A stretch of DNA of 64,000 nucleotides, taken from Parasporobacterium sp. (GTDB taxonomy: Bacteria; Bacillota; Clostridia; Lachnospirales; Lachnospiraceae). Each line of letters opens with the position of its first letter. The first letter of the stretch is position 1. Made by a program: the position numbers and the translations under genes. The DNA lies in the NCBI GenBank assembly GCA_017459985.1, contig JAFUBX010000004.1, positions 1-64,000 on the forward strand. Direction: 5' to 3'. The notes beneath the pieces are model-generated. The model had not been told where the DNA came from. It did no database searches and saw nothing but the letters and a program-made list of their open reading frames with translations. Positions 13,625 to 54,670 of this stretch are shown here, one piece after another.

Positions 13625-13645
13625 GATCCATACGGGGAATATCAA

Positions 13646-13737: not shown

Positions 13738-15126
13738 ATGGAGAATCATCCGTTTTATGCAAAAGGGGAAGGAAATAACGGTTATATCAAAAATCTGGAG
13801 GTCTGCTCCTTCAGTGATATGGACGGGAACTGCGGCATGTTCCAGATGCAGCTGTACCGGACGGAGGATGGCAGGTATTATCTGTACGGGTGCTGCTTCG
13901 GCGGGACCCAGAACGGGATCATGATCAGTGAGGTGACGGATCCGTATCATCCCCGGTTCGTCCGGCATTTCCCGCTGCTGGATCCGGAAATATATCCGAC
14001 GACCAACAGTCCCAAGCTGCAGATCGCCGAGGATCTGATGATCGTGGCCATGAGCAGCGGCAGCGGTCCGGATTCGCTGGTGCAGTATGATCCGGGATCC
14101 ATCCGCTCGGAGGCGGGGATCCGGATCTACAGCCTGAAGAAGGATCCGGAGAATCCGGAATTTCTCTCCTACTGGGACTGCGGTCTGTCCAATGTCATGG
14201 GCGTTCACCGGTTTATGTATAACGGGGGACGCTATGTGCATCTGTCCTGCGACTGTGTTGGATTCGAGGGCCTCATTTACCGGATCCTGGATATCGAAGA
14301 TCCGTATCATCCGGTGGAAGTCGGCAGATGGTGGCGGCCGGATCAGTTTGCGGACGGGTATCCCGGGAGAACCTTTGATCCCGGAGCTCCCCATGTGCCC
14401 TCTTTCATGGATAAGGGATGGCTCCATGGCCCGCCCTTTGTCCGGGACGGGATCGCTTACTGCGGCTATGGCGGAGCCGGCCTGGTGATCCTGGATGTCC
14501 ATGACGTGACCCGCCCCAGATGTCTGGGGGAACTGAAGCTGATGCCTGCATTTTCCAGCGAACTGGCGGGCGCCAGGACCCATACGGCCCTTCCGCTTCC
14601 CGGCCGTGATCTGGTGGTGGCACAAAATGAAGGGGAACGGTTCCAGTTCTTTACGCCGGACCGGATCAAACATCCCCAGGCATTGAACAATATCCATATG
14701 ATCGATGTCAGCGATCCTTCCCGCCCGACGTTGATTGCGGAGTTTCCATACCCGGAAGTGCCGGAAGAGTTTCCGTATCCGAATTTCAATACCGCCGGAC
14801 TGGGGGTACAGGGTCCCTTCGGTCCCCACAATCTGCATGAACCCATGAGCAATAAGCCCTGGCTGGAGCAGAGAGGGGACCGGGTGTACTGCTGCTACTT
14901 CCATGCGGGACTCCGGGTCTATGATGTGTCGGATCCTTATTATATCAAGGAGATCGCCTACTTTATCCCGCCAAACCCCAACAAGAAACCGGAAGAGTCC
15001 TACTTCCCGGGGTTCAAGGGGCCCCGGCTGGCAGTGACGGAGGACATTGTTGTGGATGACCGGGGATATATCATCATTGATGCCCTGGACGACGGATTCT
15101 ATATTCTGAAGATGAAGGAAGGATGA
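13738..15126 (+). CDS. LVIVD-repeat (beta-propeller-like) cytoplasmic protein
   Basis: A 462-residue protein without a signal peptide. Blocks of the form GLVILDVHDVTRPRCLGEL, NNIHMIDVSDPSRPTLIAEF and GLRVYDVSDPYYIKEIAYF recur through its length and match LVIVD repeats, which build a beta-propeller. Related proteins are found in clusters for uptake and breakdown of organic acids, steroids or sulfur compounds, and the fold is shared with selenium-binding/methanethiol-oxidase proteins, but no catalytic role can be stated. Its ribosome site is AAAGGAGAG. It is the first gene of a set (LVIVD, EthD-like, SDR) downstream of the importer and probably handles the imported substrate. Confidence 0.75.
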   Translation: MENHPFYAKGEGNNGYIKNLEVCSFSDMDGNCGMFQMQLYRTEDGRYYLYGCCFGGTQNGIMISEVTDPYHPRFVRHFPLLDPEIYPTTNSPKLQIAEDLMIVAMSSGSGPDSLVQYDPGSIRSEAGIRIYSLKKDPENPEFLSYWDCGLSNVMGVHRFMYNGGRYVHLSCDCVGFEGLIYRILDIEDPYHPVEVGRWWRPDQFADGYPGRTFDPGAPHVPSFMDKGWLHGPPFVRDGIAYCGYGGAGLVILDVHDVTRPRCLGELKLMPAFSSELAGARTHTALPLPGRDLVVAQNEGERFQFFTPDRIKHPQALNNIHMIDVSDPSRPTLIAEFPYPEVPEEFPYPNFNTAGLGVQGPFGPHNLHEPMSNKPWLEQRGDRVYCCYFHAGLRVYDVSDPYYIKEIAYFIPPNPNKKPEESYFPGFKGPRLAVTEDIVVDDRGYIIIDALDDGFYILKMKEG

Positions 15127-15230
15127 GCTGCCGGCCGCGGCAGAAATCCCCGGATCGCGGCTGCGAACGGACCTGATCGCGGAAGGGGAGATGCTAGCTG
15201 CATCGGAAATGACAGAAAAGGAGAGAGACG

Positions 15231-15989
15231 ATGATACGATCAATGGCGCTGCATACTGTAAATATGGACAATCTTGCGGCCTGCGAACGCTGGTACTGGA
15301 CGAAGCACGGACCGGAGCTGTACCGCAGATATGAACCTTGGCTGGTGCGTTTCGAAAGCTTCCGCGCGGTCGCCGTTCCGGATGCGGAGAAGGTCACTGA
15401 GTACGGGATCACCAACTGGATGGCAACCTCCGGTTACTGGAGGGAAGTTCCGGAGCCGGGGCCGAAGGGGGAAATGAGCCTGTCCACCCCGCCGGAGCAT
15501 GCCTACAGTTTCGGGATTTGCGTTCCGCCCCAGTGCACCGAGGATTATAAAGGAAGCGAGCTGACGCCGGGGGATCTGGCTCCGCTGCGCTGGGTCCAGC
15601 TGTACCGCTGGCCCGAGGGGGTGACCCGGGAAGAGGCGGACCAGTATTATAATGAAATCCTGGCTCCGCAGATCACCGCCTGCGAAGAAGTCCGGCGATT
15701 TTTCAGCTTCCGGGCACTGGAAGAGGATGTCCGGTTCCCCGGAGAATGGACCGAGGAAGCGAAGAAGACGATGAAGGGCGGACCGGAGGATCATCACTGG
15801 GACCGCATGAGCGAGATCTGGTTCTACGGTTTCGAAGACTGGAGAACCTTCCTTACGCGCAGTTTTCCGGCGCCTTCCTGGGCCGTTCGGGATCACTATC
15901 CTTTTGTGGCGCAGAAAGATTTCGTTTCCGGATTCCTGCTGGAACGCCCGGCCTACAACTGGAAACTGGAGAATCATACCTATCTGTAG
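15231..15989 (+). CDS. EthD-like (dimeric alpha-beta barrel) protein
   Basis: A 252-residue protein that looks like two ferredoxin-like alpha-beta halves. The first has ERWYWTKHGPELYRRYEPWL, the second YRWPEGVTREEADQYYNEIL and a matching HYPFVAQKDFVSGFLLE. The W-x3-HGP motif and paired architecture suggest the EthD/dimeric alpha-beta-barrel group, often found with ring-modifying or polyketide-type enzymes. No cofactor motif is seen. The ATG follows AAAGGAGAGAGACG. It lies 104 bases after the LVIVD gene. The substrate is unknown. Similarity is by pattern and should be treated as moderate. Confidence 0.6.
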   Translation: MIRSMALHTVNMDNLAACERWYWTKHGPELYRRYEPWLVRFESFRAVAVPDAEKVTEYGITNWMATSGYWREVPEPGPKGEMSLSTPPEHAYSFGICVPPQCTEDYKGSELTPGDLAPLRWVQLYRWPEGVTREEADQYYNEILAPQITACEEVRRFFSFRALEEDVRFPGEWTEEAKKTMKGGPEDHHWDRMSEIWFYGFEDWRTFLTRSFPAPSWAVRDHYPFVAQKDFVSGFLLERPAYNWKLENHTYL

Positions 15990-16107
15990 GGCAGGTAGGG
16001 CAGCTGCTTTATTCAGGGCGGCTGTGATGAGGTCTCAGCTGCGCCCGGAGCGGCGATGCTTTGGGCGGCGATGCTTCGGGTCGGCGATGCTTCGGGTCGG
16101 CAGCAAG

Positions 16108-16331
16108 TACCGCAATGCTCGACGTTTTTGACAATGCCTGCCGAAAAATTGCAGCATTGCGTGAGATTTTCGGCAGAGCCCCTTCTTAGATCCGGTTTTT
16201 GCCGAAAAATTGCAGCATTGCGTGAGTTTTTCGGCAGACATGGTTCTCTGAGAGCCTCCGTGACGAAAAATTGCAGCAATGCGTGAGATTTTCGACAGTG
16301 CCTGCCGAAAAATTGCAGCATTGCGGTAAAT
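16108..16331. repeat. GCAWTGC five-core palindromic element (copy A)
   Basis: A ~220-bp non-coding element. GCAATGC or GCATTGC cores are centred at 16115, 16157, 16218, 16279 and 16321, giving gaps of 42, 61, 61 and 42 bp. It starts TACCGCAATGC and ends GCATTGCGGTA, so the whole is palindromic. Each inner core is framed by GCCGAAAAATT and TTTTCGGC, which can form a 35-base hairpin. An inverted copy with the same spacing lies at 54450-54670. Confidence 0.8.
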
Positions 16332-16365
16332 CCGCCGGGTCACTGAGAAGCGATCCAACCGGTGA

Positions 16366-16452
16366 TCATGCGGAAAATGAAAAAGCCGGAAAACGCATGA
16401 TACTGAACGAAGAAAAGTCATGCGGAAAATGAAAAAACTGAAAAACGCATGA
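16366..16452. repeat. Two 35-bp TCATGCG units at 52-bp period
   Basis: Unit one spans 16366-16400 and unit two 16418-16452. Each is TCATGCGGA, 17 bases, then AACGCATGA, and 17 bases separate them. This 9-17-9-17 layout is the same as that of the 12-motif array at 35183-35477 although the arm sequence differs. Confidence 0.8.
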
Positions 16453-16480
16453 CATCTCGACGAAGAAGAAAGGAAAGGAC

Positions 16481-17263
16481 ATGGACTATACGGGAAAGAC
16501 AATCTTTATCACAGGCGGAGCCTCCGGGATCGGAAAAGAAGCCGCACTTTCCTTTGCGACTGCGGGGGCGAAGGTAGCGATCGCGACCGCCCACAGCACA
16601 GAAGCCGGGGAAGCTCTGGTGCGGGAAATCGAAAGTGCCGGCGGGACGGCGATGTTCCTGAAGCTTGACACTTCTGTGGAATCACAGGTGGAAGAAGGGA
16701 TTGCGAAAATTGTAAAGGAATGGGGGTCTCTGGATGTTGCTTTCAATAATGCCGGGCGGGGACCGGACGGCGTCAGGATTCCGTTCCGGCCGCTGGCTGA
16801 ATTGGAAGAGACGTATTGGGATCAGGTAATGGACACCAATATGAAAGGAACCTTCCTGTGCCTGAAATATGAGATCCGGCAAATGCTGAAGCAGCCCGCA
16901 GGCGGGGCAATTGTCAACACCACCAGTTCCAGCGGGCTGGCCATGAAACCGGGTTTCGGCGCTTATGGCCCCAGCAAGGCGGGAGTGATTGCCCTGACCA
17001 GACTGGCGGCAATCGAATACGCCAGACAGGGAATCCGTGTGAACGCTGTTTGCCCGGGACCCACAAAGGGTACGATTCTGATGGATAACAATCTGGCCTC
17101 CAATCCTCAGGAAGAAGAGATCCTGACCCGGCGGGTGATCCCCAGCGGCAGGATCGGAACCACGCAGGATATCGTGAAGGCCGTCATGTGGCTCTGCTCC
17201 GAAGACGCTGCCCATATTACAGGAGTCAACCTGTCTGTGGACGGCGGCGTTCATCTGAACTGA
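16481..17263 (+). CDS. Short-chain dehydrogenase/reductase (SDR)
   Basis: A 260-residue classical SDR. The nucleotide site is TGGASGIGKEA near residue 12, the structural motif NNAGRGPDG near 89, and the catalytic Y-x3-K is GAYGPSKAG (Tyr about 162, Lys about 166) with serines in TTSSSGLAM. The C-terminus ITGVNLSVDGGVHLN is typical of the FabG-like branch that includes hydroxysteroid and cyclohexadienediol dehydrogenases. It should interconvert a secondary alcohol and a ketone using NAD(P). The ATG follows AGGAAAGGAC. With the LVIVD and EthD-like proteins before it and a LysR regulator after it, a catabolic role is likely. Confidence 0.88.
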   Translation: MDYTGKTIFITGGASGIGKEAALSFATAGAKVAIATAHSTEAGEALVREIESAGGTAMFLKLDTSVESQVEEGIAKIVKEWGSLDVAFNNAGRGPDGVRIPFRPLAELEETYWDQVMDTNMKGTFLCLKYEIRQMLKQPAGGAIVNTTSSSGLAMKPGFGAYGPSKAGVIALTRLAAIEYARQGIRVNAVCPGPTKGTILMDNNLASNPQEEEILTRRVIPSGRIGTTQDIVKAVMWLCSEDAAHITGVNLSVDGGVHLN

Positions 17264-17361
17264 CCGCAGGCCATTTCCGGAGACGGGACGGCCAGAAGGC
17301 CGCGCCGACAGGGACAGCAAGGCAGGGACGGCCGGCAGGGCCAACTGGCAGAGGGAGATAA

Positions 17362-18276
17362 ATGAAAGACATAGATCTGGCAGGAATCAGTCTGCAGGAT
17401 ATCAGCAACTTTATACAGGCAGCAGAGTCTCTGAATTTTTCGCAGGTGGCCAGGGACAATGAAGTTTCGCCTTCGGCAGTCAGCAAAAGCATTGCGAGAC
17501 TGGAAAATGCCACAAACCTGATCCTGTTTACCAGACATCAGGGAAAACTGCGCCTCACACCCGCGGGAAAGAAATTCCGGGAGAAGCTGGAGGATTATAT
17601 TGTTTCCTTTGAACTGGCCGCGGTGGATGCCCATAAGCTGCAGGATGGGATCCGGGAGAGTCTCTCCATCGGGATCCCCAATGAAAATGTGATGCCGGAA
17701 CTTCTGTCTTATATCCGGGAACTGAAGAAAACCTATGCTCAGGTGGATATCAGCGCGGGCATCTACGATCTGAATACATTGAAAACAAAACTGCAGGAGG
17801 GAATGCTGGATCTGATCTTCACGAGTTATTTTGAGCGGGAAGCCTTTCAAAATACGCCGATCCGGTGGAAGATCGTAAAGCAGATGCCCCTGTGCGTGTT
17901 CATTCCGGAATCCAACCCCCTGTCAAAAAAGAATTCCGTCAGTATCGCGGATCTGCGAAGCGAGAAATTTGTGGTGCATTCGCCTTCCATGGTTCCGGGG
18001 TATCTCAAACTGGTCAATGATCTTTGCAGACCTTACGGCTTTACGCCCCTGATCGATAAATATTCCGAAAATGTGGGGGCATTTATCATGGATCTCGTTT
18101 TCGGGAACGGAGTTCTGATCGGGGACGAGCTGATCAAATCCAATTTTCCCGAATCCGTCAAATGCTTTCCGCTGGAAGGGACAGTGTCCGGAAATATCAT
18201 TGCCTGGGACGCCTCCTCGGAAAGTAAGCTTCTGAAAGCGTTGATCCGGATTATCCTGAAAATGAACGGCAGATGA
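17362..18276 (+). CDS. LysR-family transcriptional regulator
   Basis: A 304-residue LysR-type regulator. The helix-turn-helix is around residues 20-40 (LNFSQVARDNEVSPSAVSKS) followed by IARLENATNLILFTRHQGKL. The effector domain begins near residue 95 (SLSIGIPNENVMPELLSYIR). It lies 98 bases after the SDR gene and before the URO-D-type methyltransferase, and is followed by a terminator, so it may be cotranscribed with the SDR and regulate either side. It differs clearly in sequence from the LysR at 7611-8513. The inducer is unknown. Confidence 0.88.
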   Translation: MKDIDLAGISLQDISNFIQAAESLNFSQVARDNEVSPSAVSKSIARLENATNLILFTRHQGKLRLTPAGKKFREKLEDYIVSFELAAVDAHKLQDGIRESLSIGIPNENVMPELLSYIRELKKTYAQVDISAGIYDLNTLKTKLQEGMLDLIFTSYFEREAFQNTPIRWKIVKQMPLCVFIPESNPLSKKNSVSIADLRSEKFVVHSPSMVPGYLKLVNDLCRPYGFTPLIDKYSENVGAFIMDLVFGNGVLIGDELIKSNFPESVKCFPLEGTVSGNIIAWDASSESKLLKALIRIILKMNGR

Positions 18277-18310
18277 ACGTCGGCTGTGCCGGACTAGGTT
18301 CCAAAAAGAA

Positions 18311-18350
18311 TGGAGCAGCTGTTCCGATTTGGAACAGGCTGTTCCTCTTT
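18311..18350 (+). terminator. Terminator between lysR and the URO-D-type gene
   Basis: GGAGCAGCTGTTCC, loop GATTT, then GGAACAGGCTGTTCC form a long stem with one bulged G, followed by TCTTTT. AAAAAG on the left side extends the pairing. Confidence 0.75.
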
Positions 18351-18411
18351 TATCATTTTTTTCCGGGCGAAGCCGGTTTATAATCAGGACAAACGGCAAA
18401 GGAGGCTCACC

Positions 18412-19755
18412 ATGGAGAATCTGTCACAGGAACAAAAAAATCTGCAGAAACAGGAAAACCCGCAGGAACAAAATAGTCTGCAGAAACAGGAAAACCCGCA
18501 GGAACAGAATAATCCGCAGGAACGGGAAAGTCTGCTGCAGGAACGGGAGAACCGGGTAGAGACAGCGGCCACCATGGGAATCCCCGACACCGTCCCCTGG
18601 GTTCCGATGGTTTCCGGCTTTTATATGCTGGGGTACCAGGTGTCCTTTTATGATTTCATGAAAGATCCCCGGACGGTCAAAGAAGGGGTCCGGCGATTCT
18701 GCCGGGAATACGAGCCGGATGCCGGATCTCTGCCGGGGTTTTACAACATGGATTCTCTGGAGGCGCTGGATACCACATTCTTACGCTGGCCGGGGCCGGA
18801 GTGCGGGGTGCCGCTGGATGTCAGCTTCCAGCATATTGACATGGAAGCGCTGATGGAGGATGAATACGACGAATTCATCGAAGATCCCACCCATACGATC
18901 CTGACGAAGATCCTCCCGAGGAAGCACAAAAAACTGAAGGGCCTTTCCAAACTGGATTTCCATGAGGTCTATGATAAAAGCATGATCGATAGTTTTGCGG
19001 CCTTCACGGATCCGGAAGTCTGGGAAGCAGTGGAAGCCATGAAGAAAGCCGGGGAGGCCTGCAACCGGTTCCGGATGCGGATGGGTGAAGTGATGTCCAT
19101 TCTTCCGGAGGAAAGCGTGCCTCATTTTGTGCACGGGGGACTGACCATCCCCTTCGACGCATTCGCGGACAGCTGCCGCGGCATCATCAATACCTCCATG
19201 GACCTTCTGACCTGTCCGGAGGATGTGGAACGGGCTGTGGGAGCATTGACCAGATTTACCGTGGAAAAGGCGATCCGGGCAGCCGCCGCCCGCGGCGCGA
19301 AACGGATCATCATGCCCCTTCACATGGGCGTGGACGAATTCATGTCTCCGGCAAATTATGAGAAATATTACTGGCCGAACCTGAAGTACTGCATCAACAC
19401 CATCATCAGGCACGGTATGACCCCAGTGGCCTTCTGCGAGGGCCATTACGACAGCCGGCTTAAGGTTCTGTGCGATGTGCCGAAGGGAAAGGTCATCTAT
19501 ATGTTTGAAAATGTCGACCTGAAGCGGATGAAGGAAACCGTCGGTCAGGTGGCCTGCGTGGCGGGAACCGTGCCCAACGCCCTGCTGGCCTACGGAAAGC
19601 CGGAACAGGTGGAGGCGGAAACCAAGCGCCAGATCGATATTCTGGCTCCGGGAGGCGGATTTATCATGAACTGTTCCGCCATGCTGGACAACGCGGATCA
19701 TAAAAATATGCACATCTGGAGAGATGTGACCAGAGAATATGGCCGCAGCCGGTAA
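18412..19755 (+). CDS. Uroporphyrinogen-decarboxylase-fold methyltransferase-like protein
   Basis: A 447-residue protein of the URO-D superfamily, which in anaerobes usually means cobamide-dependent methyltransferases rather than haem synthesis. Blocks seen are PWVPMVSGFYMLGYQVSFYD, the (beta/alpha)8 region FVHGGLTIPFDAFADSCRG, VAFCEGHYDSRLKVL and GGGFIMNCSAMLDNA. The His and Cys in the last two could be zinc ligands. Residues 1-50 are a Gln/Glu/Asn-rich extension with a 12-residue tandem repeat (LQKQENPQEQN), not part of the fold. The ATG at 18412 follows AAAGGAGG. No corrinoid protein is encoded nearby. As the last gene of the catabolic block it may demethylate or decarboxylate the imported compound. 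Confidence 0.75.
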   Translation: MENLSQEQKNLQKQENPQEQNSLQKQENPQEQNNPQERESLLQERENRVETAATMGIPDTVPWVPMVSGFYMLGYQVSFYDFMKDPRTVKEGVRRFCREYEPDAGSLPGFYNMDSLEALDTTFLRWPGPECGVPLDVSFQHIDMEALMEDEYDEFIEDPTHTILTKILPRKHKKLKGLSKLDFHEVYDKSMIDSFAAFTDPEVWEAVEAMKKAGEACNRFRMRMGEVMSILPEESVPHFVHGGLTIPFDAFADSCRGIINTSMDLLTCPEDVERAVGALTRFTVEKAIRAAAARGAKRIIMPLHMGVDEFMSPANYEKYYWPNLKYCINTIIRHGMTPVAFCEGHYDSRLKVLCDVPKGKVIYMFENVDLKRMKETVGQVACVAGTVPNALLAYGKPEQVEAETKRQIDILAPGGGFIMNCSAMLDNADHKNMHIWRDVTREYGRSR

Positions 19756-25611: not shown

Positions 25612-25646
25612 TCATGCGGAAAATGAAAACTTCGAAAAACGCATGA
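25612..25646. repeat. 35-bp TCATGCG inverted-repeat unit
   Basis: TCATGCGGA at 25612-25620, 17 bases, then AACGCATGA at 25638-25646. It is nearly identical to the two units at 16366-16452 and has the 9-17-9 geometry of the 35.2-kb array. Confidence 0.8.
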
Positions 25647-28613: not shown

Positions 28614-30146
28614 ATGCAGTTTGTTACAGATCAGATGGATCTTACCGCCCGGACGCATCCGGATCAGATCGGATTCACGGATGAGCACCGGGAGATAACC
28701 TTTTCCTGTCTGGCGGAGGAATCCCGCAGACTGGGAACCGGCATTGCCCGTCTGGGAGAACGCCGGCAGCCGGTCTGCATCTTCATGAAGAAATCCATCG
28801 AGTGCATCGAGGCGATGCTGGCGGTGATTTACAGCGGGAATTTCTATACGGTGATCGATGTGGATATGCCGGAAAGCAGGATCCGGAAGATCCTGGAGGT
28901 ACTGGAGCCGGCGGCCGTTGTGACGACAAAGGCCTTTGAGGATCAGGCAAAGGAGATCTTCCGGGAGATCCTTGAGATTCATCCCGGAAATCTGATCCTG
29001 TATGAAGACGCAGTCAGAATGCAGCAGGATCCGGAGCTTCTTTCCGCAATCAGAGCACAACAGCAGGATTCGGATACCATGTTCGTGCTCTTTACCTCCG
29101 GCTCCACCGGAGTCCCGAAGGGCGTGATCATTTCCCACAGGGCGGAACTGTGCCACCTTGCATGGATCGCCCGGGCCTACGGGCTGGATGACGGACATAT
29201 GGTTTTGGCAAGCCAGGTGCCGATGTATTTCATCATGGCCGCCTTTGATGTGTTCGAGACCATCCGGACCGGCGGACAGTGTCATCTGATCCCGGATAAG
29301 CTGTTTTCCTTCCCGGTGCTGCTGCTGCAGTTCCTGAAGGAGCGCAGGATCAATACTCTTTATATTGTTCCTTCCGTTCTTTGCATGATCGCCAATTTCC
29401 GGGCGCTTCCGGAGGTGCATCTGGATCATCTGAAGCTGGTGATCTTCGGCGGCGAAGTCATGCCGGTCAAACAGCTGAATCAATGGATCCGGGAATATCC
29501 GGATACGCTGTTCGCGGATCTGTACGGCGCGACGGAGGTGGCCGATACCCTGACCTGGTACAATGTGCCGGGGATCCTGGATGAGAATGAAACGATTCCG
29601 ATCGGCAAATGTGCCGGGCATATGGGAATCCTGATTCTGGACGAGGATCTGAAGGAGGTTCCGGACGGAGAGGTGGGAGAACTCTGCGCCACAGGCCCGT
29701 CCCTGGCGGACGGCTATTATCATGATCCGGAGCGGACGGCCCAGGTGTTCACCCCCAATCCCCTGTATCAGGAAGGGGACAGTGAGGATACAAAGAGGAT
29801 CTATCACATGGGAGACCTGGTCCGGAAGGATGAGAACGGAGACCTGATCTATATCGGCCGGAAGGACTTCCAGATCAAACATATGGGACATCGGATCGAG
29901 CTGGGCGAGATCGAGACCGCCGCGGGTTCTCTGGAGGGAATTGACAGAAACTGCTGCCTGCACCAGAAGGAGACCGACCAGATCGTTCTGTTCTATACCG
30001 GAGACGCGGAGGAAGAGGACACGGTGATCCGGCTGAGAGATTTGCTGCCGGACTATATGGTTCCGACCCGGGTGGAGAAGCTGGAGCAGATGCCCCTGAA
30101 CCTAAACGGAAAGATTGACCGGGCGCTGCTGAAAGGATACCTGTAA
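28614..30146 (+). CDS. DltA-like amino acid adenylating enzyme
   Basis: A 510-residue adenylate-forming ligase. The ATP loop is LFTSGSTGVPKGVIISHRAE, then VIFGGEVMPVKQL, YGATEVADTLTWYNV, GDLVRKDENGDLIYIGRKDF and the C-terminal lysine motif LNLNGKIDRALLKGYL. The length and IEL-GEIE pattern match DltA, which activates D-alanine and loads it on the carrier DltC. A carrier protein, MBOAT transferase and SGNH protein follow in the same operon. The specificity residues cannot be read safely, and the unusual presence of a sodium symporter in the operon leaves open an amino acid other than D-alanine. The ribosome site is GGAGG. A diverged second copy is at 46377-47912. Confidence 0.85.
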   Translation: MQFVTDQMDLTARTHPDQIGFTDEHREITFSCLAEESRRLGTGIARLGERRQPVCIFMKKSIECIEAMLAVIYSGNFYTVIDVDMPESRIRKILEVLEPAAVVTTKAFEDQAKEIFREILEIHPGNLILYEDAVRMQQDPELLSAIRAQQQDSDTMFVLFTSGSTGVPKGVIISHRAELCHLAWIARAYGLDDGHMVLASQVPMYFIMAAFDVFETIRTGGQCHLIPDKLFSFPVLLLQFLKERRINTLYIVPSVLCMIANFRALPEVHLDHLKLVIFGGEVMPVKQLNQWIREYPDTLFADLYGATEVADTLTWYNVPGILDENETIPIGKCAGHMGILILDEDLKEVPDGEVGELCATGPSLADGYYHDPERTAQVFTPNPLYQEGDSEDTKRIYHMGDLVRKDENGDLIYIGRKDFQIKHMGHRIELGEIETAAGSLEGIDRNCCLHQKETDQIVLFYTGDAEEEDTVIRLRDLLPDYMVPTRVEKLEQMPLNLNGKIDRALLKGYL

Positions 30147-30149
30147 TCT

Positions 30150-30290
30150 ATGGAGATCATCATTGCTGCCGCATTGTGCATATGGCTGACGTTCTTTTCC
30201 CTGTGGGCGTATTTCACCGTAAAGAAGGATCTGTCGGAGTCTGAAACAGACACCGGGACCAAAGAACCGGAAGAGAGAGGGACCAGATGA
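30150..30290 (+). CDS. Small membrane protein of a sodium symporter (accessory subunit-like)
   Basis: A 46-residue frame starts four bases after dltA-like stops and overlaps the symporter start as ATGA. It reads MEIIIAAALCIWLTFFSLWA, one membrane helix, followed by a charged Glu/Lys/Thr tail. Short single-helix proteins directly upstream of sodium:solute symporters are known as symporter small accessory proteins. The translational coupling at both ends argues that it is real. Whether it stabilises or modulates the carrier is not established. Confidence 0.75.
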   Translation: MEIIIAAALCIWLTFFSLWAYFTVKKDLSESETDTGTKEPEERGTR

Positions 30291-31930
30291 ACATTTATCT
30301 GATTGGAATGCTCATTACGATGGTCCTGTTCATTGTGATCGGTCTGATCGTCAGCCGGAAGATCAAAAATGCGGAGGACTTCTATGTGGCGGGCCGGCAG
30401 GCGCCGGTGCTGCTGATTGCCGGATCTCTGATCGCTTCGTATATGGGGACCGGCCTGTTCATGGGAGATGCGGCCACCAGTTATAAGGGAGCCCTCGGAC
30501 CCATGACCATCATTGCGTGTATGATGGGGGCGGGCAGCGTTTTCGGAGCGGTGTTCTTCGGAAGGCAGCTGCGCAGGTCCCGGACCTTTACGATCCCGGA
30601 GTTTTTCGGGATGCGGTTCGCATCGGAGCCGATGCGGATGCTTTCCGCCGTGGTTTCCATTGTGACCATGACGGTCTATCTTCTGAGCGTCGTGCAGGGA
30701 CTCGGGACATTAATGACGACGGTGACCGGCGTGGATTATAACATCTGCGTGATCGCTTCTGCCGTGGTGTTTACGTTTATTTCCGTCTCCTCCGGGAGCA
30801 AGGGTGTCCTGATTACTGATACAATGATGGCAGCTCTGTTCACTCTGTCCCTGATCGTGGGGATCGGGTTTATCGCGAAGGGGACCGGAGGATATTTTGA
30901 GAGCATCCGGGGGCTTGCTTCGGATCCTTTGACATCCGCGTTTCTGTCCTGGACCGGCAAGCCGGGGGTACTCGGAGCCACCGTCAATACCACCTTTGAT
31001 GTGATTCTCTGGGGCGTGGTCTATGGAGTTGTGTGGGGAGCCGTCGGGATGATCAGTCCCTGGCAGGCCAGCCGCTATCAGATGGCCAGATCGGAACATG
31101 TCATTATCAAAAGCTCGTTTATTGCCGCCTTCGGACTGTTTGCCCTGGACTTCTTCGCCATGATCGGCGCGCTGCTGGTGCAGCGGGTTTATCCGGACAT
31201 GGCGGATCCCAGCCGGGTCATGATCTGGGCCAGCATGAATCTGATGCCGAAGATCATTGGCGTCGTTCTGCTGACCGGAATCCTGTCTGCGGGGATCTCC
31301 TCCGCCACCACCTTCCAGTCCCTGATCGGGGCTTCCATCGCAAATGACGTGATGCGGAAGGTCCGGATCGGCCATCCGGAAAAGATCCGGGGGAAGCAGG
31401 AGGTGGACCGTCGGAATATCCGCATTGGCCAGGCGGCGATGATCATTGCCGCGGTGATCGTGGTCCTGATCTCCATTACCAATCCGCCGGCTCTGTTTAT
31501 TTTCATGTTCATGGGAGGCTCCATGATCGCGGGAACCTGGATGCCGGTGGCGATCGCCAGTGTATTCAGCAAACGGGTGACGAAGGCGGGAGCGTTCTGC
31601 GGAATGCTGGCAGGGTTCCTCGGAACCTTCGTATATAAAGTGGTAACTTATTTTGCGGGATGGGATCCCCCGGTCTATCTGGATTCGGCCCTGGTGGGGA
31701 TCGCCTGCAATGTGATTTTCATGGTCATAGGCTCCGCCTTCACCAAAGTCACCGAGGAGGAAAGAAAAGCCCGGGAGATGATCCTGACTCTGCCGGAGTC
31801 GGAGCGGGATCCGAAGGAACGGAAAAAGACATTGCGTTTTATGAAAGCGGGATGCTTTCTGGGGCTGGCAGTGTTTGCTGTCCTGCTGATCTTCTGGCTG
31901 GTGCCGTATCTGCAGGCGAAAGCCGGATGA
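30287..31930 (+). CDS. Sodium:solute symporter (SSF family)
   Basis: A 547-residue membrane protein with about 13 helices. The SSF signature is in the early part: RKIKNAEDFYVAGRQAPVLL, SYMGTGLFMGDAATSYKGAL and GAGSVFGAVFFGRQLRRSRT, with GISSATTFQSLIGASIANDV in the ninth-helix region. It couples sodium entry to uptake of a small solute such as an amino acid, acetate, proline or pantothenate. Its place inside a dlt-like operon suggests that it delivers the residue that is then activated, although another substrate is possible. It overlaps the small helix protein by four bases, and 62 bases separate it from the carrier protein gene. Confidence 0.9.
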   Translation: MNIYLIGMLITMVLFIVIGLIVSRKIKNAEDFYVAGRQAPVLLIAGSLIASYMGTGLFMGDAATSYKGALGPMTIIACMMGAGSVFGAVFFGRQLRRSRTFTIPEFFGMRFASEPMRMLSAVVSIVTMTVYLLSVVQGLGTLMTTVTGVDYNICVIASAVVFTFISVSSGSKGVLITDTMMAALFTLSLIVGIGFIAKGTGGYFESIRGLASDPLTSAFLSWTGKPGVLGATVNTTFDVILWGVVYGVVWGAVGMISPWQASRYQMARSEHVIIKSSFIAAFGLFALDFFAMIGALLVQRVYPDMADPSRVMIWASMNLMPKIIGVVLLTGILSAGISSATTFQSLIGASIANDVMRKVRIGHPEKIRGKQEVDRRNIRIGQAAMIIAAVIVVLISITNPPALFIFMFMGGSMIAGTWMPVAIASVFSKRVTKAGAFCGMLAGFLGTFVYKVVTYFAGWDPPVYLDSALVGIACNVIFMVIGSAFTKVTEEERKAREMILTLPESERDPKERKKTLRFMKAGCFLGLAVFAVLLIFWLVPYLQAKAG

Positions 31931-31992
31931 GCGGGCGAAGCTGCAAGAACGGGCGGAGCTGCAAGAGCGGGCAATATAAAGGAGAAACGGAA

Positions 31993-32217
31993 ATGGAACA
32001 ATTTATTGCAAATCTGAAAAAGATCAAAAGAGGAGTTGATTTCGAGAAGGAGACCAGTCTGATCGATGACGGGCTGCTGAAATCCTTCGACGTAATCCAG
32101 ATCATCGGGATGATCGACCGGGAATACGGGATCGATGTTCCCCCCTCACAGATCCTGCCGGATAATTTTAACAGCGCCCGGGCAATGTGGGATATGATGC
32201 AGCGGCTGGAGGACTGA
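31993..32217 (+). CDS. DltC-like acyl/aminoacyl carrier protein
   Basis: A 74-residue acidic helical protein. The phosphopantetheine site is expected at Ser in DGLLKSFDVIQIIGMIDREY; DltC proteins usually read LDSFD there, so Lys replaces the Asp before the Ser. The rest (YGIDVPPSQILPDNFNSARA) matches carrier-protein helices three and four. The ATG follows AAAGGAGAAACGG. It would carry the activated residue from the 28614-30146 enzyme to the MBOAT protein encoded 11 bases downstream. Confidence 0.88.
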   Translation: MEQFIANLKKIKRGVDFEKETSLIDDGLLKSFDVIQIIGMIDREYGIDVPPSQILPDNFNSARAMWDMMQRLED

Positions 32218-32227
32218 TGATCCGGCC

Positions 32228-33865
32228 ATGACACTGACTTCCCTTACTTTTTTCGCCTTTGTTCTGGCGGTACTGATCGTATATTATCTGATCCCGAAAC
32301 GGCTGCGCTGGCTGGTGCTTCTTGCCGCCAGCCTGGTTTTTTATGGCCTGCTTGCCTTAAAATCCCTGCCCTTTATCCTGTTCACCGCCCTAAGCACCTG
32401 GGCGGGAGCGCTCTGGCTGGGACAGGTCACCCGGAAACGGACGCAGATCTGGAATGAGCAGAAATCCGGATGGGATCCGGCTGCCAGAAAAGCCTATAAG
32501 AAACAGACCCAGAAGATGAAACGCCGGATCCTGGCCCTGATCCTGGTTCTGAATTTCGGGATCCTGGCAGTGCTGAAATACTATGATTTTGTCGTGGAAC
32601 AGATCAACCGGAATGCTGGGGGGCATCTTTCCTTTCTCGGGATCCTGCTGCCCCTGGGGATCAGTTTCTATACCTTCCAGTCCATGGGGTATCTCATTGA
32701 TATTTACGGAGAGAAAATGCCTCCGGAGTCAAATCCGCTGAGGTATCTGCTGTATGTGACATTTTTCCCCCAGATCATCCAGGGCCCGATCGCGGATTAT
32801 CAGAAGCTGGCGCCCCAGCTGTACGAAGGACAGGATCTTCGCTATGAGAATCTGAAATACGGATTTCAGCTGATTTTGTGGGGCTTGTTCAAGAAAATGG
32901 TGATCGCCGACCGGCTGGCAGTATCCCTGCAGTCGCTCCTTCCCGTAAAGGATGAGATCAGCAATGCCTGGCAGCTTCTGATCCTTCTGATCTACTGCGC
33001 ACAGCTTTACTGTGATTTCTCGGGAGGCATCGACGTGGTGCGGGGTGTCGGAGGCATGCTGGGGATCGAGATGGCGGTCAATTTCAAACGTCCCTTCTTT
33101 TCCAAAGGACTGGCGGAGTTCTGGCAGAGATGGCACATTTCCCTGTGTGCATGGCTCAGGACCTATCTTCTGTACCCGATTGCCGTATCCAAGCCGTTCC
33201 TCCGGTTCGGGAACCGGATCATCGAAAAGAGCAGATCAGAGCAGGAACTTCCGGAGGACAGTCTGTGGGGAGGATTTACGTTTATCCAGCATCTGGGAAG
33301 GGTTCTGCCCGGCGCGATCGCCACGCTGATCACCTTCTTGATCATCGGGATCTGGCATGGCGCAAGCTGGCAGTATGCGGGTTACGGGGTATGGAACGGC
33401 GTGATCCTGTTCTTTTCCATGCTGCTTGCTCCGGTATTTCAATGGCTGATCCGCAGGCTGCATATCCAAACCGAAAGCACCGGCTGGAAGGTCTGGCAGA
33501 TCCTGCGTACCGCTGTGATTGTGGGCCTGTCCTTTACCTTTGATATTGCGGACGGTTTGATGGATGCCCTGCGGATGATCGGAAAATGTTTTACGCCGGT
33601 GCTGGGTCCGACCACCCACCTCGGTACCGCCGTCGATACCGGACTGGCGGGCGCCGACTGGGGCGTCGTAATCGCGGGCCTTCTGATCGTATTTGCGGTC
33701 AGCCTCTATCAGGAACTGACGGGGAGGAAGGTCCGGGAATCGCTGAATGCCGATTCTGCGTGGGTTTCCTGGGTTCTGACCCTGGGATGCCTGATTGCCG
33801 TTGTCATCTTCGGGATGTACGGACCGGGAGTTGCTTCCGGCGAGTTTGTTTACATGCAGTTCTGA
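32228..33865 (+). CDS. MBOAT family membrane O-acyltransferase (DltB-like)
   Basis: A 545-residue polytopic protein. The MBOAT core is clear: LGISFYTFQSMGYLIDIYGE, FFPQIIQGPIADYQKLAPQL, YCDFSGGIDVVRGVGGMLGI, FWQRWHISLCAWLRTYLLYP and the catalytic histidine region FLIIGIWHGASWQYAGYGVW. DltB moves D-alanine from DltC across the membrane toward teichoic acids, and alginate-type acetylases are related. It is longer than typical DltB (about 400) because of an extension that includes about residues 70-100 (basic, KKQTQKMKRR) and the C-terminal segments. The ATG follows GGAGG at the end of the carrier gene. Confidence 0.9.
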   Translation: MTLTSLTFFAFVLAVLIVYYLIPKRLRWLVLLAASLVFYGLLALKSLPFILFTALSTWAGALWLGQVTRKRTQIWNEQKSGWDPAARKAYKKQTQKMKRRILALILVLNFGILAVLKYYDFVVEQINRNAGGHLSFLGILLPLGISFYTFQSMGYLIDIYGEKMPPESNPLRYLLYVTFFPQIIQGPIADYQKLAPQLYEGQDLRYENLKYGFQLILWGLFKKMVIADRLAVSLQSLLPVKDEISNAWQLLILLIYCAQLYCDFSGGIDVVRGVGGMLGIEMAVNFKRPFFSKGLAEFWQRWHISLCAWLRTYLLYPIAVSKPFLRFGNRIIEKSRSEQELPEDSLWGGFTFIQHLGRVLPGAIATLITFLIIGIWHGASWQYAGYGVWNGVILFFSMLLAPVFQWLIRRLHIQTESTGWKVWQILRTAVIVGLSFTFDIADGLMDALRMIGKCFTPVLGPTTHLGTAVDTGLAGADWGVVIAGLLIVFAVSLYQELTGRKVRESLNADSAWVSWVLTLGCLIAVVIFGMYGPGVASGEFVYMQF

Positions 33866-33996
33866 CCGCGGGAACGCCAGGACCCGGGCGGAACAGAGTC
33901 GTCTTTAGGAGATCTGAGCTTCCGGGGGACGGAGCCTTCAGAGATCTGAGCTTTCGGGGATCTGAGTCTTCTGGGAGAACTGATTACAAAAAATCA
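33866..33996. repeat. Short degenerate repeats between the MBOAT and SGNH genes
   Basis: GAGATCTGAGCTT occurs near 33909 and again near 33943, and a shorter GGGATCTGAGTCTT follows near 33958. The gap otherwise shows no gene. The ribosome site of the next gene is weak. Confidence 0.5.
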
Positions 33997-35070
33997 ATGA
34001 AAAAGAAACATTGGATCAAAATCGCTATATTTGCCGCATTGACCGCGCTGATCCTTCTGTTTGCGTCTTCACTTCTGTGTGTTGCGAATGAGAAGGATGC
34101 GGTGGGTCTGTACGGATTTTTTCTGGAACCGGAGGACAGTATCGATGTGGTACTGATCGGATCCAGTTCCATTTATACCGGATTTTATTCCCCGCTGGCC
34201 TACGAGCAGCAGGGGTTCACCAGTTACGCCCTGTCCACCTCCACGATGACGGCGCCGCTGTACCGGTACGCGGCGGAACTGGCCATCGAGAAACAGCATC
34301 CGCAGCTGCTGATCTTCGAAACCTGGAGCTTTACCTATGAGGATCAGCAGGATGAGACAAGTCTGCGGAAATTCCTGGACGCGCTTCCGGATTCGGAGCT
34401 GAAGCAGCGGGCTATCCGGGAGATCGTGCCGGAGGAATTGCAGACTTCCTTCCGCAATCCCTTCGAGAAATACCATTCTTCCTGGGACCGTTTCGGGGAA
34501 CTGCTGCAGGTGATGCAGGATAAGCTGCAGATGAAGCGGCAGGGGTATTCCGTCACCAAGAATTTCGGCACCACCCCCTTCCGCCAGCCCTATCTGCAGC
34601 GCACGACGGATTATGAGGTCTCCGAAAGCGGATTTTACTATCTTCAGGTCCTGCTGGACTATCTGAAGGAGGCGGAGATTGAGAACGTATTGTTTATCCG
34701 CTGTCCGGACATGGTGCAGTACGTCGGGACGGATTCCTACAAGAGAATGATTGAAATGATCCGGGACGCCGGGTTTGATTTTGTCAATCTCAGCGCGGCG
34801 GTGGAGGATATCGGTGTGGACATCGGCCATGACTATTATAATACGACTCATTTCAATGTCTTCGGGGCAGAGAAATTCACCACCTTCCTTGCGGATTATA
34901 TGATGAAGCGCTACCGGCTCCGGACCGACCATGATCCGGCGGTCCTGGAAGAGTGGGACCAGTGCGCCTCCCGCAACCAACAGATCCTCGGATATCTGGA
35001 GGAGCTGACGGAACAGGATGCCAATGGATTTCTCTACACCCAGCGGGATTTTCTGGAGCCCGCATTCTGA
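33997..35070 (+). CDS. Membrane-anchored SGNH-like protein (DltD-like partner of the MBOAT)
   Basis: A 357-residue protein with one N-terminal membrane helix (IKIAIFAALTALILLFASSL) and an extracellular SGNH/GDSL-like domain. Block I is VVLIGSSSIYTGFYSPLAYE, where the Ser after GS would be nucleophilic, and the C-terminal block is YYNTTHFNVFGAEKFTTFLA, with a His where the catalytic Asp-x-x-His would be. This layout is that of DltD and of AlgX/AlgJ-type partners of MBOAT proteins, which help transfer the group outside the membrane. It differs from classic DltD in length and sequence. ATG 33997 is the only in-frame start that gives an ordinary signal anchor; its ribosome site is poor. Confidence 0.75.
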   Translation: MKKKHWIKIAIFAALTALILLFASSLLCVANEKDAVGLYGFFLEPEDSIDVVLIGSSSIYTGFYSPLAYEQQGFTSYALSTSTMTAPLYRYAAELAIEKQHPQLLIFETWSFTYEDQQDETSLRKFLDALPDSELKQRAIREIVPEELQTSFRNPFEKYHSSWDRFGELLQVMQDKLQMKRQGYSVTKNFGTTPFRQPYLQRTTDYEVSESGFYYLQVLLDYLKEAEIENVLFIRCPDMVQYVGTDSYKRMIEMIRDAGFDFVNLSAAVEDIGVDIGHDYYNTTHFNVFGAEKFTTFLADYMMKRYRLRTDHDPAVLEEWDQCASRNQQILGYLEELTEQDANGFLYTQRDFLEPAF

Positions 35071-35182: not shown

Positions 35183-35477
35183 TCATGTAAAAACGAGAGT
35201 CAATTGGATTTACATGACTATTTTCGGAAAAGAATCATGTATAAATTAAAATCTTCTGATTTTACATGATGAAAAACAGGAATTTGTCATGTAAAAAAGA
35301 ACGTTCCCTGATCTTACATGATAATAATAGAGATTATTTCATGTAAAAAAGAGTTTAATTTGAATTTACATGATGAAAAATGGAAAACCGTCATGTAATA
35401 ATAAAAGTTGTGAATATTTACATGATGTTGAGACAGAAATCTTCATGTAAAATGGCACATTTCTGTAATATACATGA
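35183..35477. repeat. Alternating inverted 9-bp motif array, 12 motifs at exact 26-bp steps
   Basis: TCATGTAAA-type motifs start at 35183, 35235, 35287, 35339, 35391 and 35443, and their inverted form TTTACATGA starts at 35209, 35261, 35313, 35365, 35417 and 35469. Every step is 26 bp, and eleven 17-base spacers of different sequence separate them. Small changes occur: TCATGTATA at 35235, CTTACATGA at 35313, TCATGTAAT at 35391 and TATACATGA at 35469; TCATG/CATGA is always kept apart from none. No cas or other array-processing gene is near, and no reading frame crosses it. Sites 26 bp upstream of the first and downstream of the last motif are absent, so the array is six complete 35-bp units at 52-bp period. 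Confidence 0.92.
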
Positions 35478-36259: not shown

Positions 36260-37771
36260 CTATTCCTCTTCGCCTCTGGCCAGAGCCTCTGCCTGCATTT
36301 TCTGGATATCCGGGAAATGGGAGATCATCGGCTCGATCTTTTTGCCGTGGAATTTCCGGTCGGCATAGTTCTTTGTGATCTTATAGACCAGCGGGAACAG
36401 GGCCAGAACGCCGATCAGGTTCGGGATCGCCATCAGTCCGTTGAAGGTATCGGAAATGTCCCAGGCCAGGGACAGATCCATGGTCGCACCTACAAAGATG
36501 AATAATACGAAAACGATCTTGTAGACGAAGGATGCCTTCTCGCCGAACAGGAACTCAAAGGATTTGGTTCCGTAGTGGCTCCATCCCAGTACGGTGGAGA
36601 ATGCGAAGAATAACAGGGCAATGGCGACAAATCCGGGGCCTGCAGAACCGAACAGGGTACCGAAGGCCTGGCCGACCAGTGTGGAGGTGGAAGCATCCGC
36701 ATAAGCGGCTGCCACAGCGCCTGTGCTGAGATCGATCACGCCGGAGGTCAGGACCACCAGAGCCGTCAGAGTACAGACGATGATGGTGTCCGCGAAGACT
36801 TCAAAGATGCCCCACATACCCTGACGTACAGGCTCCTTGACGTTGGAACTGGAATGAACCATAACGGAGGAACCAAGGCCGGCTTCATTGGAGAAGACCC
36901 CTCGCTTCATGCCGTAGGTCAGGGCCAGCGCCAGACCGCCGCCCACGATACCGCCGCCGGCGGCCTTCAGCCCGAAGGCACCCTTGAAAATGGCGGAAAA
37001 GGCGGGTCCCAGATTGGCTGCGTTGACACAGATTACAACGATAGCAGCGATGATATAAATGATGGCCATGAAGGGGACGATCTTCTCCGTTACGGAGGCG
37101 ACCCGCTTCAGACCGCCCAGGATGATCAGTGCACCTAATGCCAGCAGGATCAGGCCCACGATCCAGGCGGGAATGTGGAAGGCTGCGTCCATGTTGGCGG
37201 CAATGGAGTTGATCTGGCTGGCATTTCCGATTCCGAAGGAAGCCAGCACGGCGAAACAGGAGAACAGGATCGCCAGGATCTTGCCGACCCATTTCATATG
37301 CTTGTATCCGCCGAGACCGTCCTGCAGATAGTACATGGCGCCGCCGGACCATTCGTTTTTCTGGTTTTTCCGGCGGAAATAGATTCCCAGGATATTCTCG
37401 GAATAGTTGGTCATCATTCCGAAGAAGGCAACGATCCACATCCAGAAGATGGCCCCGGGACCTCCGATGGCGATGGCAGCAGCCACACCGACGATGTTGC
37501 CGGTTCCGATGGTGGCGGCCAGTGCCGTACAGAGGGACTGGAACTGGGAGATGGATTTATCATGCTTTTCGGTATGTTTGGTAATGTGCTTGTTGGTGAA
37601 AATGCTTCCCAGAGTATTCTTAAACCAGTGTCCGATGTGGGTGATCTGGAATACTTTGGTAAGAATTGTCATGAAGATGCCGGTTCCTACCAGGAGAACC
37701 AGCATGGGGACGCCCCAAACAAAACTGTTGATGGAGCCATTGAAGCTGGATAGCCATTCTAAAAATGTCAT
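36260..37771 (-). CDS. Alanine/glycine:cation symporter (AGCS family)
   Basis: A 504-residue transporter with about eleven helices. AGCS features are GVPMLVLLVGTGIFMTILTK, AATIGTGNIVGVAAAIAIGG, EAGLGSSVMVHSSSNVKEPV and GWSHYGTKSFEFLFG. The family imports glycine or alanine with sodium. The ATG at 37771 follows AAGGAAC; the longer frame upstream is the riboswitch region. A tandem glycine riboswitch lies directly before it, so the substrate is likely glycine (perhaps with alanine), and expression should answer to glycine level. It is divergent from asnA. Confidence 0.92.
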   Translation of the reverse strand: MTFLEWLSSFNGSINSFVWGVPMLVLLVGTGIFMTILTKVFQITHIGHWFKNTLGSIFTNKHITKHTEKHDKSISQFQSLCTALAATIGTGNIVGVAAAIAIGGPGAIFWMWIVAFFGMMTNYSENILGIYFRRKNQKNEWSGGAMYYLQDGLGGYKHMKWVGKILAILFSCFAVLASFGIGNASQINSIAANMDAAFHIPAWIVGLILLALGALIILGGLKRVASVTEKIVPFMAIIYIIAAIVVICVNAANLGPAFSAIFKGAFGLKAAGGGIVGGGLALALTYGMKRGVFSNEAGLGSSVMVHSSSNVKEPVRQGMWGIFEVFADTIIVCTLTALVVLTSGVIDLSTGAVAAAYADASTSTLVGQAFGTLFGSAGPGFVAIALLFFAFSTVLGWSHYGTKSFEFLFGEKASFVYKIVFVLFIFVGATMDLSLAWDISDTFNGLMAIPNLIGVLALFPLVYKITKNYADRKFHGKKIEPMISHFPDIQKMQAEALARGEEE

Positions 37772-37785
37772 TGTTGTTCCTTTCT

Positions 37786-37970
37786 GTCCTTTTGCCTGAG
37801 AGATTCGAAACCTTTGCAGATCCCTTGCCCCTTCGGCCCCCGTTGACCCGGGTGTCTCCAGATTGCCATCCAGCTGTAGTCCTGACCGCGGGCGGTCTCC
37901 TGAGAGTATTACTCCTTCGGCAGAATATCCCCGGAGGGACATTCACTTTCCTGCAGCTTTCATCTGGCAG
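37786..37970 (-). ncRNA. Tandem glycine riboswitch
   Basis: On the minus strand two glycine aptamers follow each other. The upstream one contains GCCGAAGGAGTAA and CTCTCAGG; the downstream one contains GGCCGAAGGGGCAAG and AATCTCTCAGGCAAAAGGAC, which is the hallmark 3' end. It stands directly before the AGCS symporter start. Two cooperative glycine-binding domains normally control genes for glycine use or efflux. Boundaries are approximate. Confidence 0.92.
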
Positions 37971-54345: not shown

Positions 54346-54449
54346 GATGTGACGGGCATGCCGATGGCCTGTGATGAAAGACCGTTGAGGGCCAGCAGGC
54401 TGAAATGTGAAGGGCTGATTAGTCAGTTGAAGGGCATTTCAGATAGATT

Positions 54450-54670
54450 TACCGCAATGCTGCAATTTTTCGTCAGCCCTTGTCGAAAAACTCACGCATT
54501 GCTGCAACTTTTCGTCAACGAGTCGCTCCGAGAGGCGTTTCTGCCGAAAATCTCACGCATTGCTGCATTTTTTCGGCAAAATCCGTGCTGAAGAGAGGGC
54601 TCTGCCGAAAATCCCACGCAATGCTGCAATTTTTCGTCAGCCCTTGTCAAAAACTTCAAGCATTGCGGAG
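54450..54670. repeat. GCAWTGC five-core palindromic element (copy B, inverted)
   Basis: Cores are centred at 54457, 54499, 54560, 54621 and 54663, so the gaps are 42, 61, 61 and 42 bp, identical to copy A at 16108-16331, and the sequence is its reverse complement. It begins ACCGCAATGC and ends GCATTGCGG. GCCGAAAATCTCACGC and TTTTTCGGC frame the cores. No gene is visible in the gap 54230-54699. Confidence 0.85.

What the first reader, a model, noticed from the sequence alone, without database searches (positions are those of the whole stretch)
35183..35477. Twelve-site array of alternating inverted 9-bp motifs at an exact 26-bp pitch
TCATGTAAA and its complement TTTACATGA alternate twelve times with starts at 35183, 35209, 35235 and so on to 35469, every step 26 bp, with eleven 17-nt spacers that are all different. 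Either reading gives 35-bp inverted-repeat units at a 52-bp period. 26 bp is about 2.5 helical turns, so sites of the same orientation (52 bp) share one face and inverted ones face away. Transcribed, each pair could form a 9-bp stem with a 17-nt loop in two mutually exclusive registers. It is not a CRISPR (repeats too short and alternating, no cas genes), and no protein frame explains it. It could be a metered protein-binding array, a DNA-structuring element or an RNA with variable loops. Strongest candidate for an undescribed system.
Basis: seen in the sequence. Interest (0 to 1): 0.92.

Follow-up and report, generated by a model that had tools for sequence, protein, structure and literature searches.

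The report
Dispersed 26-bp-pitch inverted site arrays
A gut bacterium and a few relatives carry many intergenic arrays in which a short DNA site alternates in direction at an almost exact 26-base step; the site and the step appear to be kept while the DNA between them changes, which suggests docking rails for an unknown DNA-binding protein.

Summary
The array is real: twelve sites at an exact 26-bp pitch. All share TCATGTA; the 9-mer is exact at eight.

It is one copy of a dispersed family. The window's genome has 122 TCATG-N25-CATGA units against 1 for the reversed control. With unit length left free from 20 to 50 bp, 42 of the 50 listed matches (of 143; control 0) are exactly 35 bp. Arrays occur in 3 of 14 genomes of the genus, this one included, and a variant in a further genome, G409.

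The building block is a 35-bp unit plus a 17-bp linker. Spacers are diverged tandem copies. In three orthologous pairs the TCATG core keeps 137 of 140 bases and spacers 352 of 481; in units not used to find the loci, 47 of 50 against 79 of 105, p 0.004. In one pair all ten sites differ in type, CG against TA.

RNA hairpins, TIGR-Tas and NikR were not supported. Closest known kind: REP/BIME, without the tag, compensatory changes or a proven transposase. Best reading: a BIME-like row of operators; protein and purpose unknown.

The parts
35183..35477 (.). Array of six 35-bp units TCATGTA...TACATGA separated by five 17-bp linkers; 12 sites, 26-bp pitch, TA type
35183..35217 (.). Unit 1
35235..35269 (.). 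Unit 2
35287..35321 (.). Unit 3
35339..35373 (.). Unit 4
35391..35425 (.). Unit 5
35443..35477 (.). Unit 6
16366..16452 (.). Two-unit array of the CG type (TCATGCGG...CGCATGA), same 35 + 17 geometry
25612..25646 (.). Single CG-type unit

Best explanation
The array is one copy of a dispersed intergenic element, BIME-like in arrangement, whose conserved part is a row of DNA operators. Shown: each unit is 35 bp with inverted TCATGYR ends in A/T-rich surroundings; units repeat at 52 bp; arrays grew by duplication of the 52-bp unit; the site core drifts less than the bases between. Inferred: a symmetric DNA-binding protein sits on each unit through its two TCATGYR half-sites; because 52 bp is five helical turns at about 10.4 bp per turn, successive dimers lie on one face of the helix and can touch and bind cooperatively, and the sequence type (CG or TA) sets which protein binds or how tightly. 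What the filled array does (insulating or organising intergenic DNA, or supporting the element's own spread) is not shown.
For: Unit length free from 20 to 50 bp: 42 of the 50 listed forward matches are 35 bp and 3 are 34 bp; 143 matches in all, control 0. Around the loci fetched, unit length is 35 in 70 of 75 (G000) and 72 of 74 (JAFWOB/JAFRKZ), linker 17 in 53 of 61 and 57 of 60 (these loci were found with the exact spacing, so these figures are favourable). Of 33 arrays with four or more exact sites, 27 start with TCATG and end with CATGA and none does the reverse. Orthologous arrays: core 137/140 against spacer 352/481, Fisher p 6e-13; because loci were fetched by intact sites, the fairer figure uses only units outside the search match in at least one partner: 47/50 against 79/105, p 0.004. 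In the four alignments the arrays differ by no indel except one whole 52-bp unit (L025/L028). In L030/L031 all 20 YR bases differ, so all ten sites are of the other type. Within-unit arm match (43 of 75; 36 of 50) is no better than match across a linker (39 of 59; 28 of 43), which fits separate DNA sites and not a hairpin.
Against: No binding protein was found. Neighbouring genes show no common theme by reading. Curvature and a 10.4-bp A/T rhythm are not consistent between arrays, so helical phasing rests on the 52-bp period alone. CG-type units in G000 are near-identical between loci, as a spreading mobile repeat would be. Arrays turn over: the array beside rimP is in G000 only, 1 of 14 genomes. 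Some JAFWOB/JAFRKZ arrays fold better than column-permuted controls (L028, L031, L033, L035, L039; z to -2.9). The spacer match of L030 and L031 (65%) is only a little above the next best arrays (61%), so replacement of the array, rather than a switch in place, is not excluded.
Confidence: 0.47

Rival explanations
1. A purely selfish REP/BIME- or MITE-like mobile repeat: an unidentified transposase or recombinase reads the TCATGYR ends; sites and spacing are kept only because intact units are the ones that still move or amplify.
For: Dispersed single units and clusters, near-identical CG-type units at many G000 loci, copy-number change by a whole 52-bp unit; an array present at a locus in one genome of 14 only; in G000 5 of 12 CG-type loci and 0 of 7 others lie within 400 bp of a second dispersed element (p 0.11).
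Against: Arrays with barely related spacers still keep every site and the pitch (window, L041). Y1 transposase genes do not track arrays: none in G002 (arrays, 79% complete), present in G001, G007 and G010 (no arrays). No REP-type tetranucleotide tag beside the site in the site profile. Other transposase families were not searched.
Confidence: 0.25
2. Decaying tandem duplication without function: a 52-bp repeat amplified and is now drifting.
For: Spacers are diverged copies: excess identity of adjacent units +0.147 and adjacent linkers +0.158 in JAFWOB/JAFRKZ, +0.140 and +0.142 in three G000 arrays. Part of the apparent core conservation comes from how the loci were found.
Against: Core drifts less than spacer even in units outside the search match (47/50 against 79/105, p 0.004); indels other than whole units are rare.
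Confidence: 0.12
3. An RNA element: transcribed hairpins (9-bp stem, 17-nt loop) or one long hairpin from the T-rich left and A-rich right half of many JAFWOB/JAFRKZ arrays.
For: Natural arrays fold better than spacer-shuffled ones (mean z -2.3, 34 folds); composition changes from T-rich to A-rich along many arrays; terminator-like inverted repeats follow some arrays by eye (L030, L031, L033, L039).
Against: The better control, column permutation, gives mean z -0.76 over 32 folds and +1.0/-0.2 for the window; no arm covariation within units; global-dyad excess identity is barely above other registers.
Confidence: 0.1
4. A guide-RNA array (TIGR or CRISPR type), with spacers as guides.
For: Alternating short repeats with variable spacers of fixed length, as in TIGR arrays (PMC12045711, passages read).
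Against: No Nop-domain protein in 14 genomes of the genus; spacers are mutated copies of each other; 3 of the 11 spacers had no exact viral match and the array none in phage or plasmid collections; TIGR spacers are 9 nt, some up to 12.
Confidence: 0.03

Closest known systems
REP/BIME (bacterial interspersed mosaic elements; REPINs)
   Same: More than 100 dispersed intergenic copies, inverted pairs, regularly spaced alternating orientation, tandem whole-unit amplification. BIME-2 binds DNA gyrase and BIME-1 binds IHF (PMC2817692, passages).
   Different: Site is only TCATGYR; no GTAG-type tag; no compensatory hairpin; spacing almost invariant while spacers are free; no cognate RAYT shown.
TIGR arrays (TIGR-Tas)
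   Same: Alternating short repeats with spacers of fixed length; stem-loop variants exist (PMC12045711, passages).
   Different: Spacers of 17 nt between 9-mers instead of 9-12, the two repeats are reverse complements, no Nop protein in 14 genomes, arrays dispersed over the genome.
NikR-type operators (recalled from memory, no call)
   Same: Recalled operator GTATGA-N16-TCATAC resembles RCATGA-N17-TCATGY across a linker.
   Different: NikR_C domain 0 of 14 genomes; more than 100 units in one genome.
CRISPR arrays
   Same: Repeats with spacers that differ.
   Different: Short alternating repeats, many dispersed loci, spacers homologous to each other.

Membership tests
REP/BIME | High-copy, dispersed, extragenic | tested here: met
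   122 units against 1 control in G000 (2 lie on C37, a duplicate contig; one listed match, C52:16243, looks like chance). The loci examined lie between predicted genes, with small overlaps of predicted frames at L042, L054 and L017
REP/BIME | Regularly spaced repeats in alternating orientation | tested here: met
REP/BIME | Conserved tetranucleotide (GTAG or CGTC) next to the palindrome | tested here: not met
   Site profiles of 40 and 114 sites show no such tag
REP/BIME | Palindrome kept by complementary changes | tested here: not met
   Within-unit match no better than across-linker match
REP/BIME | Cognate RAYT (Y1) transposase | tested here: inconclusive
   Y1_Tnp in 5 of 14 genomes, not tracking arrays; one of the two G000 copies was fetched (L058) and has no unit beside it; genomes incomplete
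TIGR-Tas | Nop-domain Tas protein | tested here: not met
   PF01798 0 of 14
TIGR-Tas | Two different 8-12-nt repeats with 9-12-nt spacers | tested here: not met
   17-nt spacers between 9-mers, repeats reverse complements
CRISPR | Direct repeats with unrelated foreign spacers | tested here: not met
   Alternating repeats; spacers mutually homologous; 3 of 11 spacers tested, none viral
CRISPR | cas genes | not tested
   No cas search was made
NikR operators | NikR protein (NikR_C domain) | tested here: not met
   PF08753 0 of 14

The most novel reading that the evidence does not exclude
The arrays are a metered binding rail with two interchangeable specificity classes, TCATGCG and TCATGTA. A pair of related DNA-binding proteins, not yet described, reads them; whole arrays are re-addressed from one class to the other, as L030/L031 suggest with ten sites of the other type, and the 52-bp period holds the proteins on one face of the helix.
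Probability: 0.2. Interest if true: 0.85.

Novelty: new variant of a known kind. Interest (0 to 1): 0.6.

Why it matters
REP and BIME repeats have been linked to several proteins and roles (PMC2817692, passages), and one survey of tagged repeats does not mention Firmicutes or Clostridia (PMC3733652, 0 occurrences). Here is a BIME-like family in Clostridia-type gut bacteria (placement recalled from the genus name) in which spacing rather than spacer sequence is kept, so phasing on the helix becomes a direct test of function. The difference of type at all ten sites of one orthologous array is unusual and points to a trans-acting reader that a DNA pulldown could identify.

Tried and rejected
RNA hairpins: spacer shuffles gave mean z -2.3, but these shuffles also destroy the A/T flanks of each site; column permutation reduced it to -0.76. 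Global palindrome of the whole array: weak signal only. Intrinsic curvature and helical A/T rhythm: of 14 arrays, raised clearly in the window, L031, L033, L036 and L038, not in others such as L054, L044 and L056; 10.4 bp leads only in the G000 TA group once sites are masked, 13 bp in the other two groups. RAYT: not tracking. TIGR: no Nop domain. NikR: absent. Phage or plasmid origin: none. Effector gene beside the arrays: the one protein cluster shared by all four genome groups looks like ABC-transporter proteins by reading, a common class. Bacillus dakarensis matches (L020, L040): near-exact 52-bp tandem copies, judged chance resemblance. Literature: searches listed no paper that describes these arrays by title or abstract start; passages were read in PMC12045711, PMC3116915, PMC3733652, PMC2817692 and PMC8266576, no whole paper. 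The library is open-licence papers only.

Rows left out. Searches used 9 own and 18 other arrays on a strict grid: own loci L042, L046, L048-L050, L053, L055, L057 and the short window copies were not used, nor L018, L027, L037; L024 has one shifted unit; orthologous copies were kept. One search used 4 own and 15 other arrays. One search used 15 other arrays (11 of five units, one orthologous pair among them) and 3 own. One search dropped L056. One search skipped L047 (duplicate contig) and L025, L027, L034, L037 (orthologous copies). The pooled Fisher test used 3 of 4 orthologous pairs; L036/L037, identical at 241 of 243 bases over the array, was left out. Further G000 loci listed (for example C36:9244, C46:420, C58:7197) were not fetched.

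Full report
Observation. The window holds twelve sites from 35183 to 35477 at an exact 26-bp step with alternating orientation. The 9-mer is exact at 8 of 12 sites and TCATGTA at 12 of 12. Pitch 26 gives a chain of 11 steps; no other pitch from 15 to 40 gives more than 2. The unit pattern occurs 9 times in the window, mean 0.11 in 100 shuffles.

A genome-wide family. The window lies in a 3.53-Mb assembly, G000, which has 122 forward matches of TCATG-N25-CATGA against 1 for the reversed pattern. Contig C37 repeats window 13426-18658 at 99.98% identity and so counts two units twice, and one listed match (C52:16243) looks like chance. With the unit length left free from 20 to 50 bp (TCATGYR to YRCATGA) there are 143 forward matches and 0 in the control; of the 50 listed, 42 are 35 bp, 3 are 34 bp and 5 other lengths. 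Three of 14 genomes of the genus, G000 included, carry linked sites: G000 78 forward and 85 reverse matches, G002 20 and 24, G004 41 and 40, controls 0. In a sample of 397 genomes of the family only G000 matched; G002 and G004 do not appear in that listing.

Other records. Among genome contigs a two-unit pattern gave 25 stretches: 13 in one Parasporobacterium MAG (JAFWOB), 8 in another (JAFRKZ), 2 in an uncultured MAG (CAMFGH) and 2 in Bacillus dakarensis. Identical array sequences show that JAFRKZ is G002 and JAFWOB is G004 (inference). The Bacillus case is a near-exact 52-bp tandem repeat and is probably chance. Viral contigs gave none.

A further lineage. The CAMFGH genome (G409) has 12 unit matches against 3 in the control, so single matches there prove little, but linked sites occur 6 and 3 times against 0. 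Its arrays lie at three places, mostly with TCATGG as site start, units of 35 or 36 bp and linkers of 17 or 18 bp, with some broken sites. A family search around it lists genomes of the same sizes in much the same order as the family of G000, so it is probably the same family (inference); none of its 59 companions in that sample matched.

Anatomy. Around the fetched loci unit length is 35 in 70 of 75 cases in G000 and 72 of 74 in JAFWOB/JAFRKZ; linker length is 17 in 53 of 61 and 57 of 60. These loci were found with the exact spacing, so one search is the fairer figure. Exceptions are units of 34 (four), 36, 23 and 24 bp and linkers of 16 (four), 5, 6, 29, 39, 45, 50 and 51 bp. Arrays with four or more exact sites start with TCATG and end with CATGA in 27 of 33 cases, and none does the reverse, so the building block is the 35-bp unit. 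After TCATG comes a pyrimidine-purine step (CG, TG, CA or TA), then A/T for four or five bases; on the linker side the flank is A/T-rich directly in JAFWOB/JAFRKZ and from the third or fourth base outward in G000; the middle of unit and linker is freer, apart from an A/T-rich unit centre (the TCATG columns themselves are conserved by the way sites were chosen). Some arrays are all TA (the window, L041, L023, L031), some all CG (L016, L019, L030), some mixed.

Evolution. Adjacent spacers are more alike than their composition predicts (+0.147 for units and +0.158 for linkers in JAFWOB/JAFRKZ), so arrays grew by duplication of the 52-bp unit; linkers of the same index in different arrays are also alike (+0.162 against +0.083), which suggests shared ancestry of arrays at different loci. 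Four orthologous pairs of JAFRKZ and JAFWOB were found by flanking proteins and DNA. In L030/L031 the core is identical at 50 of 50 bases, the YR step at 0 of 20, the spacers at 113 of 173, and the flank just after the array at 140 of 147 alignment columns. The two arrays are each other's best match at 65%, but the next best arrays reach 61% and the medians are 51-54%. In L033/L034 the core is 38 of 40, YR 13 of 16 and spacers 95 of 135; in L025/L028 49 of 50, 18 of 20 and 144 of 173. Pooled, core 137/140 against spacer 352/481 gives Fisher p 6e-13. Since loci were fetched because they hold intact sites, I repeated this with five units that lie outside the search match in at least one partner: core 47 of 50, interior 79 of 105, p 0.004. 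L036/L037 are identical at 241 of 243 bases. At genus scale arrays turn over: the array beside rimP is in G000 and in none of the 13 other genomes, and the G004 relative of the window's upstream gene (69% identity) has no unit in its fetched stretch.

Tests of mechanism. If the unit acted as a hairpin, its two arms should match better than neighbours across a linker. They do not: 43 of 75 against 39 of 59, and 36 of 50 against 28 of 43. Folding of the window array is no better than column-permuted copies (z +1.0 and -0.2; mean over 32 folds -0.76; some JAFWOB/JAFRKZ arrays reach -2.9), although simple spacer shuffles gave mean z -2.3. Many JAFWOB/JAFRKZ arrays run from T-rich to A-rich, which may explain the weak long-hairpin signal. 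Curvature is raised in some arrays and not in others.

What is nearby. No gene theme is seen by reading; no family search was run on the neighbours. They include, by eye, rimP, an acyl-CoA ligase, butyrate kinase and others, in all relative orientations. For the window array the gene caller chose an antisense frame on the left; the likely true left gene is the 494-aa frame ending at 35070, which makes the pair co-directional. A promoter-like TTGAAA-N17-TATAAA lies about 70 bp after the array by eye; the scan did not list it, and the five promoter-like sites that it did list lie inside the array.

Reading. The constraint appears to sit on short DNA sites and their spacing, not on RNA pairing, spacer content or curvature. 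That is best explained by a protein that binds TCATGYR half-sites as a symmetric dimer on each 35-bp unit. With 52 bp, five turns at about 10.4 bp, all dimers face the same side. This last part and any role are inference. The CG/TA difference at all ten sites of L030/L031 suggests either two readers or selection for one type per array; replacement by another array is not excluded.

Comparison. REP/BIME elements share dispersal, alternation and tandem growth (PMC2817692, passages; PMC3116915, passages; PMC8266576, passages). The tag and the complementary-change features were tested and not met, and no cognate transposase was shown. So it works like a BIME but is not filed as one. TIGR arrays look similar in outline but fail on protein and spacing.

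Noticed in passing
window 16142-16330 and about 54447-54639; loci L103-L118: A second dispersed intergenic element in G000: 31-bp unit CGAAAAATTGCAGCATTGCGTGAGATTTTCG, 57 forward and 67 reverse matches with up to 3 mismatches against 0 in the control. In 15 of 18 loci read (chosen for close matches) three units lie 61 bp apart with variable 30-nt linkers, usually followed by about 11 nt and a half unit ending GCGGTAA; left end TACCGCAATGCT. It lies within 400 bp of 5 of 12 CG-type and 0 of 7 other TCATG loci (p 0.11); L049 shows parts of one between two identical TCATG units.
   Followed up: partly
window 37774-37871, minus strand: Glycine riboswitch (Rfam RF00504, 59.9 bits), overlapping the 5' end of the longest minus-strand frame 36260-37942, which reads like a sodium:alanine/glycine symporter by eye.
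   Followed up: no
window 28614-35070: By eye the frames read like a dlt-type operon (adenylating enzyme, carrier protein, MBOAT, DltD-like) with a sodium:solute symporter inside it; no family search was run.
   Followed up: no
G000 contig C37 (L047): 99.98% copy of window 13426-18658, an assembly redundancy.
   Followed up: yes
JAFWOB/JAFRKZ arrays, for example L030, L033, L038: Top strand runs from T-rich at the left to A-rich at the right end of the array; unexplained.
   Followed up: partly
L020, L040 (Bacillus dakarensis): 52-bp tandem repeat, near-exact copies, that happens to fit the TCATG pattern.
   Followed up: no
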